A stretch of DNA of 32,775 nucleotides, taken from the NCBI GenBank assembly GCA_035765895.1, contig DASTWL010000021.1, positions 1 through 32,775 on the forward strand. Reading direction: 5' to 3'. The notes under the pieces were generated by a model. It was not told the DNA's origin, did no database searches, and worked only from the letters and a program-made list of their open reading frames with translations. Origin of the DNA: Verrucomicrobiia bacterium (GTDB taxonomy: Bacteria > Verrucomicrobiota > Verrucomicrobiia > Limisphaerales > DSYF01). This document shows positions 16,982-21,051 of the stretch, in pieces. The position numbers and the translations under genes are program-made. Positions within the stretch are counted from its first letter, which is position 1, and each line of letters begins with the position of its first letter.

Positions 16982-17311
16982 CGCGCGTTGAAGTATTACC
17001 GGGCCAGAGGCTGCAAGGCCTGCCCGCTGAAAAGCCAGTGCACGCGGAACCAACAAAACCGCACGCTCACGCGGGAGGCGAATGAACACCTGATGGAAGC
17101 GATGGCGCTGCGGATGAAACAACAGCCGGCGAAGTTCCGGTTGAGGAAGCAACTGGCCGAACATCCGTTCGGCACGCTCAAGCGCTGGTTCGGCGACACG
17201 CACATCATGTTGAAAGGACTCGCCAAAGTGCGGACCGAATGGAGCCTGATGACACTGGCCTATAACGTCAAACAAGTTGTGGGACTCACGCCCCAAACAA
17301 CGCAGGAATGA
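16982..17311 (+). pseudogene. IS1182-like transposase, C-terminal remnant
   Basis: Only about the last 105 residues of a DDE transposase remain. The sequence has a zinc-knuckle-like CKACPLKSQC, then TREANEHLMEAMALRMK, then EHPFGTLKRWFG with the final catalytic Glu, and ends with a helix containing AYNVKQVVGL. This is the C-terminal organisation of the IS1182 group, whose proteins are normally several times longer. An in-frame stop at 16979-16981 lies directly upstream, and the catalytic Asp residues and N-terminal domain are absent, so the gene is dead. I do not see terminal inverted repeats. Its last 30 nt fall inside a diverged repeat that recurs at 18374-18500. Confidence 0.85.
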
Positions 17312-17401
17312 AGAGCAGCCACCATGAAGACCTATCTACTCCGCCACCCCAAACCTGTCGAGCCGCGAAACGAACGCCAGAACTCAGCCACGCCCGGCCG
17401 G
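17281..17401. repeat. Diverged 120-bp repeat, copy 1
   Basis: This stretch resembles 18374-18500 in the same orientation. Shared blocks are GGGA--CACG, GGAATGAAG, the identical 15-nt CCTATCTACTCCGCC (17331-17345) and a closing CGCCCGGCC. Copy 1 starts inside the transposase 3' end and finishes inside the attC-like site, so it joins both. Confidence 0.6.
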
Positions 17402-17467
17402 CGACGTGAACCGCGAAAGCGGAACTGAATGCGCCATCCGGCGTGGGCTGCAGTGATCTGGTTCGGC
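17369..17467 (-). repeat. attC-like imperfect palindrome after the TPR protein gene
   Basis: Read on the minus strand, this 99-nt site starts 10 nt after the stop of the gene at 17478-17888. It opens with GCCGAAC, close to the integron core RYYYAAC, and closes with GTTCGTT, near GTTRRRY. The arms CAGATCACTGCAGCCCACGCC (one base short of the whole arm is quoted as CAGATCACTGCAGCCCACGC) and, from the far side, CAGAACTCAGCCACGCC pair with unpaired bases on one side only, the extrahelical-base pattern of attC. Plus-strand arms are 17376-17396 and 17439-17460. The GTTCGTT end departs from consensus. Confidence 0.5.
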
Positions 17468-17477
17468 AATGTCGGTC

Positions 17478-17888
17478 TCATTTGGTCAGCAGTTTGAAAT
17501 CTCCACCCGCCGCTTTCCGCTTCCGAACCGCTGCCAAATCCTTCTCGCTCTCCTCATTGGGGAACAACTCATATGCCCGCGAATACTGTGCCTCCGCATT
17601 CGTAACGTCACCCATTGCCAAGTAGATCGCTCCCAAGCAGGCATGCCCGTAGTAATAATTCGGTTGGCTGGCGACCAGAGTCTGCCCCATGGATACCGCC
17701 TTCGGAAAATCCTGGCGTCTCATTGCCGTCGTGACCTGGTCCCATGAATCTGCCTTCGATAACCCTCGTATAAATCCAGCATAGAAGGGAGGCACCGAGC
17801 CCAAGGTGATAAAGATCAGAATCACGTAAAACACGTGCTTGAGCTTGCGAAGCTCAACCAAAATCTCCCGATTGATGTCCTCACTCAT
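17478..17888 (-). CDS. Small membrane protein with TPR-like tail
   Basis: This 136-residue protein has a polar start (MSEDINREILVELRKLKH), one membrane segment at about residues 19-41 (VFYVILIFITLGSVPPFYAG), and a soluble tail. The tail carries one to two TPR-like helix pairs, with ACLGAIYLAMGDVTNAEAQY and then RAYELFP matching the TPR consensus at its Ala/Gly/Tyr positions. It probably serves as a protein-protein interaction module tethered to the membrane; no function can be named. Codon and base use are slightly less GC-rich than in the flanking housekeeping genes. It is bracketed by attC-like palindromes on both sides. Its first 12 nt, ATGAGTGAGGAC, are identical to those at the start of the small gene upstream. 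Confidence 0.7.
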   Translation of the reverse strand: MSEDINREILVELRKLKHVFYVILIFITLGSVPPFYAGFIRGLSKADSWDQVTTAMRRQDFPKAVSMGQTLVASQPNYYYGHACLGAIYLAMGDVTNAEAQYSRAYELFPNEESEKDLAAVRKRKAAGGDFKLLTK

Positions 17889-17905
17889 GTGACGTGCGAT
17901 TTGTT

Positions 17906-18029
17906 GCCGAATACCCCAGGCTCAGCGACGGCCGCGGCGGCGGCGATGGAGCGCACGGTGCGCTCACGCACTCCCGCAATGCTCGAATGCACGGCGGAGA
18001 GGCCGTTCGCGGCAGCACGCTGGTTAGAC
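17906..18029 (-). repeat. attC-like imperfect palindrome between two small genes
   Basis: On the minus strand this 124-nt site begins 14 nt after the stop of the gene at 18044 with GTCTAAC, a perfect match to the integron core RYYYAAC (plus-strand GTTAGAC, 18023-18029). It ends 17 nt before the ATG of the next gene with GTATTCGGC. The arms end in CGAACGGCC and GGCCGTCG and pair imperfectly with bulges; the middle is GC-rich and self-complementary (GCGCACGGTGCGC). The distal core is degenerate, so this is attC-like and not a proven site. Confidence 0.45.
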
Positions 18030-18043
18030 ATCGTCATAAAATC

Positions 18044-18244
18044 TCAACGTCCATGCTTCCGAAGCGGCAAGACGAAAATACCGAGGACAGCGCCGGCGCA
18101 ACCCGCAACAAGAGCACGCACCCAAAACAAATCGAACTCTCCTCGCATTCCCATCAGAACTCCGAAAAGAACGATGCCACAAATGAAACGCGCAATCTGT
18201 GCTGGCTGAAATTTCGGCGCTTCTTGCTTCTGGTCCTCACTCAT
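18044..18244 (-). CDS. Small two-helix membrane protein
   Basis: This 66-residue protein starts MSEDQKQEAPKFQPAQ and has two hydrophobic segments, about residues 20-34 (ARFICGIVLFGVLMG) and 42-58 (WVRALVAGCAGAVLGIF), ending in basic LRKHGR. I do not recognise a family. I chose the ATG at 18242-18244, with AGGAG 11 nt upstream; an ATG at 18266-18268 would add eight residues. It shares its first 12 nt with the TPR-like gene downstream. Together with that gene it looks like one of two small cassettes with attC-like sites at their 3' ends. Confidence 0.6.
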   Translation of the reverse strand: MSEDQKQEAPKFQPAQIARFICGIVLFGVLMGMRGEFDLFWVRALVAGCAGAVLGIFVLPLRKHGR

Positions 18245-18268
18245 GGATTCGTGTGCTCCTGTGGGCAT

Positions 18269-18676
18269 CGCCGCCTAGCCCGTATGGCTTTCGTTGAAAG
18301 TGGAAGCGGTGTCTGCTTTCCGGAGCAAACGTGGGTTGCGACCTGCGGTGCAGGTTGCCGGGCCACCGGTTAAGGGATGCACGTCCCAGACAACACCGGA
18401 ATGAAGTTCCGCGGCCATGCAGCCCTATCTACTCCGCCCGACCCCGTCCGTCCAGCGCTAAACCGGCCGCGAGCCGGAATGCCGAGCCTCGCCCGGCCCG
18501 CTGTTTCAACCTGACCAACCATCCGCGTCCCCCTCACGTGTGCCCCGGTTGAACAAGTGTCCGGCTCAGTGGTTATCTGGCGTGCTCTGCGATGGCTGGC
18601 GGCGTGACCGCCTTCGCGGACTCGGTGCGGGCTAAACTTGCCGGCGCTTCCGCGGGTTCGGTTTCATCGGGCGAAC
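18269..18676. other. Accessory non-coding stretch with repeat copy 2
   Basis: No convincing gene is visible. A 47-codon open frame on the minus strand (18275-18418) starts M-A-A-E-L-H-S; a similar peptide start can be read on the minus strand inside repeat copy 1, but this only reflects the shared repeat. The stretch 18480-18590 has a weak attC-like look, with ATAACCACTGAGCC on one side and GAGGCTCGGCATTCC on the other, 97 nt or more from the HetC-like stop. Confidence 0.4.
18374..18500. repeat. Diverged 120-bp repeat, copy 2
   Basis: This is the second copy of the repeat at 17281-17401, same orientation, with the identical 15-nt block at 18424-18438. It lies about 1.1 kb from copy 1, and the two copies bracket the two small membrane-protein genes. 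The similarity includes the bases that encode the end of the transposase in copy 1, but no transposase reading frame survives here. Confidence 0.6.
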
Positions 18677-20133: not shown

Positions 20134-20310
20134 TCAGAGACTTACCATTCTCCCTTGATTTGAGCGCAATGGGAATGCGGGAAAAGAATTCTGCGCGGCA
20201 GAAGGGCAAAGACGATCCAAATCCCCGCTCAAACCTTTGTCTTTCCGCATAATATCGCGGGCCGACTTGAGCAACGCTCCGAGTGACGGTGCTGTAGTTG
20301 GCGAAGGCAT
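20134..20310 (-). pseudogene. hsdM 5' fragment, copy 2
   Basis: The first 34 codons match the start of type I restriction methyltransferase subunit HsdM: LGALLKSARDIMRKDKGL then SGDLDRL, just before the point where an intact protein continues with its LTWIMFLKFL-like segment. After codon 34 (near base 20209) similarity ends and the frame runs through unrelated sequence to a stop at 20134-20136. The ATG at 20308-20310 lies 2 nt from the repeat arm 20313-20338, which also holds the stop codon of the GxxExxY gene upstream. The methyltransferase domain is entirely absent. Confidence 0.8.
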
Positions 20311-20312
20311 TG

Positions 20313-20338
20313 GACAGGATAAACCGGATTTACAGGAT
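20313..20338 (+). repeat. Solo arm (type B) of the 9-nt-period palindromic element
   Basis: The 26-nt arm follows the 9-nt period ACAGGATKW, with two changes in the middle unit. It covers the last codons and TAA stop (20330-20332) of the GxxExxY gene and sits directly before the second hsdM fragment. Confidence 0.75.
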
Positions 20339-20731
20339 AAAATCTTTTGGCAACGGTTTGGGGCGATAAGTCCGCGTCTTGCGTTTAAATTCCAGCCGCT
20401 CCGCGCCGAAATTCAGCAGCAGCCCAATCTCAATGCCCGTGGCCGTGAGATAATTGACCAGTTGCACCTCGTTGGCTGGCGCGAGCGCCTGGTTGGCCTT
20501 CAATTCCAACATGACCCGGTCTTCCACAAGCATGTCTGCCGAAAATTCGCCCACGGCGACGCCATCGTAGTGAACCGTGATGGCCTTCTCACATTCGACC
20601 TTCAATCCCGCCTTGCCTAGTTCGTGTGCCAGTGCCTTTTGATACACTGATTCGAGAAAGCCCGGCCCAAGTGTAGAGTGGACTTTCATTGCACAGCCGA
20701 TGATTTTTTCTGTCAGCGCTTGATCTTCCAT
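20330..20731 (-). CDS. GxxExxY protein (PDDEXK-like)
   Basis: This 133-residue protein carries the defining motif GFLESVY (residues 24-30) and the downstream block with Asp66 (SADMLVED) and Glu76-x-Lys78 (LELKA). The spacing fits the D...ExK core of the PDDEXK_3 nuclease-like fold. GxxExxY proteins are widespread, often multicopy, and lack a proven function; a nuclease role is inferred from the fold. The frame is intact and full length. I chose the ATG at 20729-20731 (MEDQALTEKI), the usual family start. A palindromic element arm ends its inner side 8 nt upstream, and another arm supplies the last codons (F-I-L) and stop. The gene lies between two hsdM 5' fragments. Its integrity among broken neighbours suggests recent arrival or selection. 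Confidence 0.92.
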   Translation of the reverse strand: MEDQALTEKIIGCAMKVHSTLGPGFLESVYQKALAHELGKAGLKVECEKAITVHYDGVAVGEFSADMLVEDRVMLELKANQALAPANEVQLVNYLTATGIEIGLLLNFGAERLEFKRKTRTYRPKPLPKDFIL

Positions 20732-20738
20732 AGTTTTG

Positions 20739-20835
20739 GACGGGATTAACAAGATGGACAGGATGACGGCCGGATGAGGTTTCCCGCGCTGCTCGGCCTC
20801 TGTTTTGAAATCCTGTAAATCCTATTCATCCTGGC
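20739..20835. repeat. Palindromic element E1 (arm A, 45-nt centre, arm B inverted)
   Basis: Arm A (20739-20764) and inverted arm B (20810-20835) are each 26 nt and built from the 9-nt unit ACAGGATKW. They face each other around a 45-nt centre that ends CTCTGTTTTGAA. E1 lies 8 nt upstream of the GxxExxY start codon and 9 nt before element E2. Confidence 0.85.
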
Positions 20836-20844
20836 TTTGCTTTT

Positions 20845-20939
20845 GACAGGATTAACAAGATGATCAGGATGCAAATATTTGAAATCTCCATCGCCGGTGC
20901 TTCTCCGGTTTGAATCCTGTAAATCCTGTTCATCCTGTC
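20845..20939. repeat. Palindromic element E2
   Basis: Arm A (20845-20870), 43-nt centre, inverted arm B (20914-20939). Inverted arm B is the exact reverse complement of the arm B in E3. The centre ends TCTCCGGTTTGA, similar to the end of the E1 centre, so E1 and E2 are tandem copies in the same orientation. E2 ends 10 nt from the break point of the hsdM fragment at 20950. Confidence 0.87.
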
Positions 20940-20949
20940 TCTTGTTTCC

Positions 20950-21051
20950 GCCATTGAGCCCCTTGTCCTTGCGCATGATGTCGCGCGCGGATTTGAGCAA
21001 TGCGCCGAGGGATTGGGCGGTGGTCGGGGCTTGAGGTGCTGGTTTTGCCAT
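20950..21051 (-). pseudogene. hsdM 5' fragment, copy 1
   Basis: Thirty-four codons from the ATG at 21049-21051 match the start of HsdM, the modification subunit of a type I restriction system: LGALLKSARDIMRKDKGL followed by NG. The match stops where an intact protein would continue with DLDRL; from there the frame passes into palindromic element E2 and runs on without meaning to 20746. The start lies 64 nt after the stop of an hsdR 3' fragment, which is the spacing of an intact hsdR-hsdM operon. The two hsdM starts in the window differ in their first 14 residues, so they come from different parental genes. Confidence 0.82.

What the first reader, a model, noticed from the sequence alone, without database searches (positions are those of the whole stretch)
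17369..18244. Two small genes each followed by an attC-like site: a possible integron cassette pair without an integrase
On the minus strand the 66-residue gene is followed after 14 nt by a palindrome opening with GTCTAAC, a perfect RYYYAAC core. The 136-residue gene is followed after 10 nt by a palindrome opening with GCCGAAC, whose arms pair with extra unpaired bases on one side only. Same orientation, small orphan membrane proteins and tight gene-site spacing are all cassette features. The distal cores (GTATTCGGC and GTTCGTT) deviate from GTTRRRY, so the sites could be decayed or belong to a divergent integron lineage.
Basis: partly seen in the sequence, partly recalled or inferred. Interest (0 to 1): 0.6.

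Follow-up and report, generated by a model that had tools for sequence, protein, structure and literature searches.

The report
Two stray integron gene cassettes
Two small genes here are genuine integron cassettes with recognisable recombination sites, stranded in the middle of a bacterial chromosome segment away from any integrase and bordered by remnants of jumping elements that attack such sites; this is a real but known kind of structure.

Summary
Both palindromes are attC sites. A covariance model trained only on attC sites of other genomes of the same bacterial order finds exactly these two stretches in the window (42.8 and 30.5 bits, E 1.2e-9 and 2.8e-6), and only four more sites in the 4.64 Mb genome. 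Homologues of the 66-aa gene are cassettes between attC sites in two other genomes. The 136-aa gene has homologues at unrelated loci, one followed by an attC. The genome has an intact integron integrase on another contig (C40) and a truncated second one. The site lies mid-contig, so this is a CALIN (attC cluster lacking an integrase), not an assembly break. The 'deviant' distal cores have ordinary readings: each R' borrows its last bases from whatever lies next. New here: the pair is bordered by left-end remnants of IS1111/IS110-family elements that insert exactly into attC cores. At least 25 such remnants occur in the genome, most directly preceding a different small gene. Integrons in Verrucomicrobiota, CALINs and attC-targeting IS1111 elements are all known, so this is a new member of a known kind. 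How it was stranded (IS fragmentation or off-target insertion) is unproven.

The parts
17912..18276 (-). Gene cassette 1: 5' end (AGGC...) at the IS left-end remnant, 66-aa gene, attC1
   Evidence: Boundary from IS left-end alignment and attC1; 5'/3' ends only weakly complementary (run 2)
18044..18244 (-). 66-aa small hydrophobic (probable membrane) protein gene, no Pfam or NCBIfam family
   Evidence: homologues with the same start lie between attC sites in G162 and G085
17906..18029 (-). attC1, R'' GTCTAAC, R' (A)TTCGGC
   Evidence: R1 33.1 bits E 4.6e-7; R2 30.5 bits E 2.8e-6; arms match clean attC of G187 and G192
17369..17911 (-). Gene cassette 2: starts TTCGGCAA, 136-aa gene, attC2 with R'' ...TTGCCGAAC; exact 3' limit (within R') uncertain by a few bases
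   Evidence: After GTT/ATT the 5' end CGGCAA matches the reverse complement of its own 3' end over 6 nt (0.06% of comparable ATT/GTT-AAC pairs in the window reach 6)
17478..17888 (-). 136-aa protein gene, N-terminal hydrophobic stretch plus one weak TPR
   Evidence: Pfam TPR_2 E 1.5e-5, below the family cut-off; homologues 62% and 57% identical at unrelated loci
17369..17467 (-). attC2, R'' GCCGAAC, R' GTTCGTT
   Evidence: R1 59.5 bits E 2.6e-14; R2 42.8 bits E 1.2e-9; homologous attC at C89 and C33
18277..18466 (+). Left-end remnant A of an IS1111/IS110-family element (5' noncoding region and antisense of the transposase start), abutting cassette 1
   Evidence: Repeat family of about 26 copies in the genome; same sequence is the left end of full elements in G087 and G187
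17276..17368 (+). Left-end remnant B of the same IS type, directly after attC2, truncated
16988..17311 (+). C-terminal fragment of a DDE (IS1182-like) transposase that cuts into remnant B
   Evidence: Pfam DDE_Tnp_1_6 E 2.3e-17, 107 aa only

Best explanation
The stretch is a two-cassette CALIN. Each unit is a small gene plus an attC site. In a working integron the bottom strand of attC folds into a hairpin, and an integron integrase (IntI) recombines it with attI or another attC, so that the gene moves as a circle. These two cassettes were probably captured that way, by the genome's own IntI (contig C40) or a lost one. They were then stranded: attC-targeting IS1111/IS110-family elements inserted into cassette boundaries and were later deleted down to left-end remnants, and a DDE-transposase insertion damaged the downstream end. 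attC2 looks intact; attC1 has a changed R' (ATT for GTT) and is probably weakened. Shown: attC identity, cassette structure, homologues as cassettes elsewhere, IntI in the genome, IS remnants at the borders. Inferred: which integrase captured them, that they can still move, and the order of events. The confidence given is for the identity (integron cassettes with attC, a CALIN); for the fragmentation history alone it is about 0.55.
For: Covariance models R1 and R2 (R2 from other genomes only) pick exactly these two sites and four others genome-wide. The attC consensus shows 13 of 20 pairs kept by changes on both sides. Homologues of the 66-aa gene lie between attC sites in G162 and G085. The 136-aa gene's homologues occur between unrelated genes in G028, 3' of tRNA-Pro in G101, and before an attC in G013. 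Across 36 cassettes of this genome and relatives, 5' and 3' ends are complementary as expected of circularising cassettes: summed run 221 against 110 +/- 7 in permutations, maximum 146 of 20,000; 213 without the window's two. IntI on C40, 436 bits against a cut-off of 265. IS ends sit exactly at attC cores in full elements of relatives, with IS110-type transposase domains over cut-off. The window is the whole contig C21 with the CALIN 14 kb from either end, so it is not an assembly split.
Against: Cassette 1's own two ends are poorly complementary (AGGC against GTCT, run 2), so its 5' end may have been altered or exchanged at the IS junction. attC1's R' has ATT instead of the usual GTT. No empty site was found: in the same-genus relative only the left flank (trypsin-DUF2851) is syntenic. 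Activity was not tested.
Confidence: 0.93

Rival explanations
1. Off-target origin: the cassettes were inserted one by one by IntI acting in trans at a secondary chromosomal site, rather than being a fragment of a larger array. This is a rival for the history, not for the identity.
For: Cassettes are scattered over many contigs of this genome; the 136-aa gene's homologue in G101 sits directly after tRNA-Pro with no IS remnant in between. CALIN formation by off-target insertion has been proposed (PMC8618304).
Against: The 5' border of cassette 1 is an IS left end, not host DNA, and the 3' border is another IS remnant.
Confidence: 0.3
2. The repeated 190-bp element before cassette 1 is a dedicated dispersed landing pad (attI-like promoter with a 46-aa leader peptide) that captures cassettes.
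For: At least 25 copies, most of them followed by a different small gene starting at the same CTAGRY boundary; the 46-aa frame is open in most copies.
Against: In G087 and G187 the same sequence is the left end of complete IS110/IS1111 elements, antisense to the transposase start; several copies have frameshifts; the probable attI region beside intI on C40 and its copy on C89 have a different sequence.
Confidence: 0.04
3. The palindromes are ordinary terminators or REP-like repeats after two unrelated small genes.
For: GC-rich inverted repeats after genes are common; attC1's hairpin is not exceptional in stability.
Against: Specific match to a covarying attC model trained on other genomes, and to no other window position at E below 0.1; the genes are cassettes elsewhere.
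Confidence: 0.02

Closest known systems
CALIN (cluster of attC sites lacking integron-integrase; IntegronFinder class, PMC9024848)
   Same: At least two attC sites, small orphan genes in one orientation, no intI nearby
   Different: Both borders are IS left-end remnants; only two cassettes; intI present on another contig
Chromosomal integrons of Verrucomicrobiota (phylum listed among integron carriers in PMC8618304)
   Same: Same attC sequence family and IntI family in many genomes of the order (65 of 196 over cut-off)
   Different: This locus has no integrase and no attI
IS1111-family elements that target attC (ISKpn4, ISPst6; PMC11187229; also Post and Hall 2009, cited in PMC11208160)
   Same: IS110-type DEDD and Transposase_20 domains, insertion exactly in attC cores, short subterminal inverted repeat TATGGC/GCCATA read by eye
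   Different: Only left-end remnants here; very high copy number next to cassettes in one genome; guide RNA not identified

Membership tests
Integron gene cassette (attC) | Site fits a structure-based attC model | tested here: met
   both sites, E 2.8e-6 or better with a model from other genomes
Integron gene cassette (attC) | R'' RYYYAAC and R' GTTRRRY cores | tested here: inconclusive
   R'' GTCTAAC fits, GCCGAAC fits except the fourth base; R' ATTCGGC and GTTCGTT deviate. GCCGAAC and GTTCGGC cores occur in clean attC sites of relatives
Integron gene cassette (attC) | Cassette 5' end complementary to its own 3' end | tested here: inconclusive
   Met for cassette 2 (run 6), not for cassette 1 (run 2)
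Integron gene cassette (attC) | Gene found as a cassette in other contexts | tested here: met
   Gene 1 homologues in attC arrays of G162 and G085, gene 2 homologue followed by attC in G013
Integron gene cassette (attC) | Recombined by IntI | not testable with these tools
   Needs an assay
CALIN | Two or more attC sites without intI close by, not caused by a contig end | tested here: met
   TIGR02249 hits lie on C40, C23, C3 and C39, none on C21; the CALIN is mid-contig
Complete integron | intI plus attI at the array | tested here: not met
   upstream border is an IS left end
IS1111/IS110 family (border remnants) | DEDD transposase with Transposase_20 domain in the full element | tested here: met
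   Met in the homologous elements of G087 (both domains) and G187 (Transposase_20); the window holds only the left end
IS1111/IS110 family (border remnants) | Guide (seek/bridge) RNA in the noncoding region | tested here: inconclusive
   Left noncoding region folds with 6 of 26 pairs changed on both sides; no Rfam match

The most novel reading that the evidence does not exclude
In this genome attC-targeting IS1111/IS110 elements and their short deletion derivatives act as vehicles: cassettes that have lost the attC body and are flanked by IS right and left ends (GCCT|RE ... LE|AGGC) are moved as IS cargo, guided by an RNA, which scatters single cassettes over the chromosome independently of IntI.
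Probability: 0.1. Interest if true: 0.65.

Novelty: new member of a known kind. Interest (0 to 1): 0.35.

Why it matters
It adds a firmly documented CALIN in a lineage where integrons are known but little studied, with an attC model specific to that order. It shows that cassettes can be recognised even where the attC body is lost, from the complementarity of their two ends. The unusual density of IS left ends at cassette borders makes one question testable: how much of cassette scattering and CALIN formation is due to RNA-guided, attC-targeting insertion sequences rather than to off-target integrase activity.

Tried and rejected
(1) DNA folding statistics alone: too weak for attC1. (2) The 190-bp repeat before cassette 1 as a dedicated platform with a leader peptide (like ORF-11 of attI1, from memory): pursued seriously, dropped when the same sequence proved to be the left end of complete IS110/IS1111 elements. 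(3) The palindrome GAACCAAGATAGCTTTGGC... after some other cassettes of the genome was first taken for attC; it is not found by R1 and is probably an IS right end. (4) In the end-complementarity test C33 and window cassette 2 were first scored in a wrong register and corrected by placing the boundary at AAC/GTT; C51, of doubtful register, was left as it was and counts against the effect. (5) Empty-site search: only one flank is syntenic in the same-genus relative. (6) Rfam gave nothing for the window or the IS ends.

Full report
What was claimed.

The sequence is as described. The 66-codon gene (18244-18044) is followed after 14 nt by GTCTAAC, the 136-codon gene (17888-17478) after 10 nt by GCCGAAC; the distal ends read GTATTCGGC and GTTCGTT. 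As single-stranded DNA the second site folds significantly better than shuffles, the first only slightly, so folding alone does not decide.

The sites are attC. A search of the window's own genome (4.64 Mb, 96 contigs; the window is the whole of contig C21) with the DNA of site 2 found homologous palindromes at C89 and C33, the C89 one a textbook attC, GCCTAAC...GTTAGGC. Clean attC sites were collected from genomes of the same order, many of them near an integron integrase. Their alignment gives the expected structure, R'' pairing with R', with 13 of 20 pairs kept by changes on both sides. Model R1 (20 sites, three of them from this genome, none from the window) gave the window's two sites 59.5 and 33.1 bits. 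To remove circularity, R2 was built from 15 sites of other genomes only: 42.8 bits, E 1.2e-9, and 30.5 bits, E 2.8e-6; the next window position has E 0.14. In the whole genome R2 finds six sites at E 0.01 or better: C89, C33, C28, C42 and the two here.

The genes behave as cassettes. Homologues of the 66-aa gene lie between two attC sites in G162 and G085, starting at the same codon about 15 nt after GTTAGGC or GTTCGGC. Homologues of the 136-aa gene (62 and 57%) occur in G028 between unrelated genes and in G101 directly after tRNA-Pro, and a more distant one in G013 is followed by an attC. Neither gene is found in the same-genus or same-family genomes searched. G101's contig is QHNT01000265.1, a Verrucomicrobia MAG, so the window belongs to an order of Verrucomicrobiota (inference from shared order).

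The deviant distal cores have ordinary readings. In an array the last bases of R' belong to the next cassette. TTCGGC after site 1 is the start of cassette 2, and its extension CGGCAA is the reverse complement of cassette 2's own 3' end TTGCCG. Such end complementarity is general: in 36 cassettes of this genome and relatives the summed run is 221, against 110 +/- 7 in 20,000 permutations (maximum 146); without the window's two cassettes it is 213. GTTCGTT after site 2 runs into an IS remnant. The one real defect is ATT instead of GTT at site 1. Cassette 1's two ends match poorly.

The integrase. TIGR02249 gives one hit over the cut-off, C40:740-1681 (436 bits, 348-aa open frame), and a truncated copy on C23; 65 of 196 related genomes have one over the cut-off. 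No hit is on C21, and the CALIN lies 14 kb from either contig end, so it is not an assembly split, which is a known cause of false CALINs (PMC9024848).

The borders. A 190-bp repeat precedes cassette 1 (18466-18277) and a truncated copy follows attC2 (17368-17276). About 26 copies or fragments exist in the genome; most intact copies stop at the same CTAGRY boundary, directly followed by a different small gene. I first took this for a dispersed attI-like platform with a leader peptide. It is not: in G187 and G087 the same sequence is the left end of complete or near-complete elements inserted into an attC R' box (attC...GTT|IS|AGGC...), antisense to the transposase start, and the transposases there carry IS110-type domains. 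The ends show a short subterminal inverted repeat TATGGC/GCCATA (read by eye), as in the IS1111 group, members of which (ISKpn4, ISPst6) are known to target attC (PMC11187229). Other IS right ends in this genome sit exactly in R'' (RYCT|CGTAAGAAAC). A 107-aa C-terminal fragment of a DDE transposase (16988-17311) cuts into the second remnant. Genomes with the left end have intI more often than the rest (10 of 14 against 65 of 183, Fisher p 0.01; relatedness not corrected for).

Most likely history. IntI assembled an array; attC-targeting IS elements entered cassette borders; deletions left this two-cassette fragment with IS left ends on both sides. Off-target insertion in trans remains possible. 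Both kinds of route to CALINs have been proposed (PMC8618304).

Novelty. Integrons in Verrucomicrobiota, CALINs, and attC-targeting IS1111 elements are each known. This is a new member of a known kind. The density of IS left ends at cassette borders is the unusual part; no paper in the held library holds bridge RNA, IS110 and attC together except one that mentions attC only in its reference list. The function of the two proteins is unknown: a small hydrophobic protein, and a protein with an N-terminal hydrophobic stretch and a weak TPR.

Noticed in passing
G000 contigs C79, C69, C15, C87, C76, C42, C14, C81, C51, C74, C28, C30, C24, C10 (loci L007, L082-L094): About 26 copies or fragments of one IS1111/IS110 left end, most directly preceding a different small orphan gene; many lie at contig ends, so the true number is probably higher. 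Relatives show the same, with 10 copies in G187.
   Followed up: partly
L083, L087-L091: cassettes on C69, C81, C15, C76, C28, C74: Several cassettes have lost the attC body: an IS right end sits in R'' and another IS left end begins the next cassette, as if the attC had been replaced by the IS.
   Followed up: partly
L022 (C23:5100-5400): Truncated integron integrase gene with an attI-like stretch and one cassette, whose attC is interrupted by an IS end: a second, dead integron.
   Followed up: partly
L005 (C89, last 1 kb) and L020 (C40:560-690): The region beside intI on C40 (probable attI) has a second copy on C89 next to an ExbD-like gene but without intI, leading into a cassette with a perfect attC.
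   Followed up: no
L096:7007-7108: In G101 the homologue of the 136-aa gene begins 25 nt after a tRNA-Pro gene, with CTCTAGGC at the junction: possible insertion of a cassette at a tRNA 3' end.
   Followed up: partly
window 20299-20953: Cluster of GACAGGATTAACAAGAT-type direct and inverted repeats around a PDDEXK_3 (GxxExxY) gene.
   Followed up: no
window 18278-18418 minus: A 46-codon frame open in most copies of the IS left end is antisense to the IS 5' noncoding region; its conservation probably reflects the IS end and possible RNA hairpins (6 of 26 pairs with changes on both sides), not a peptide.
   Followed up: partly
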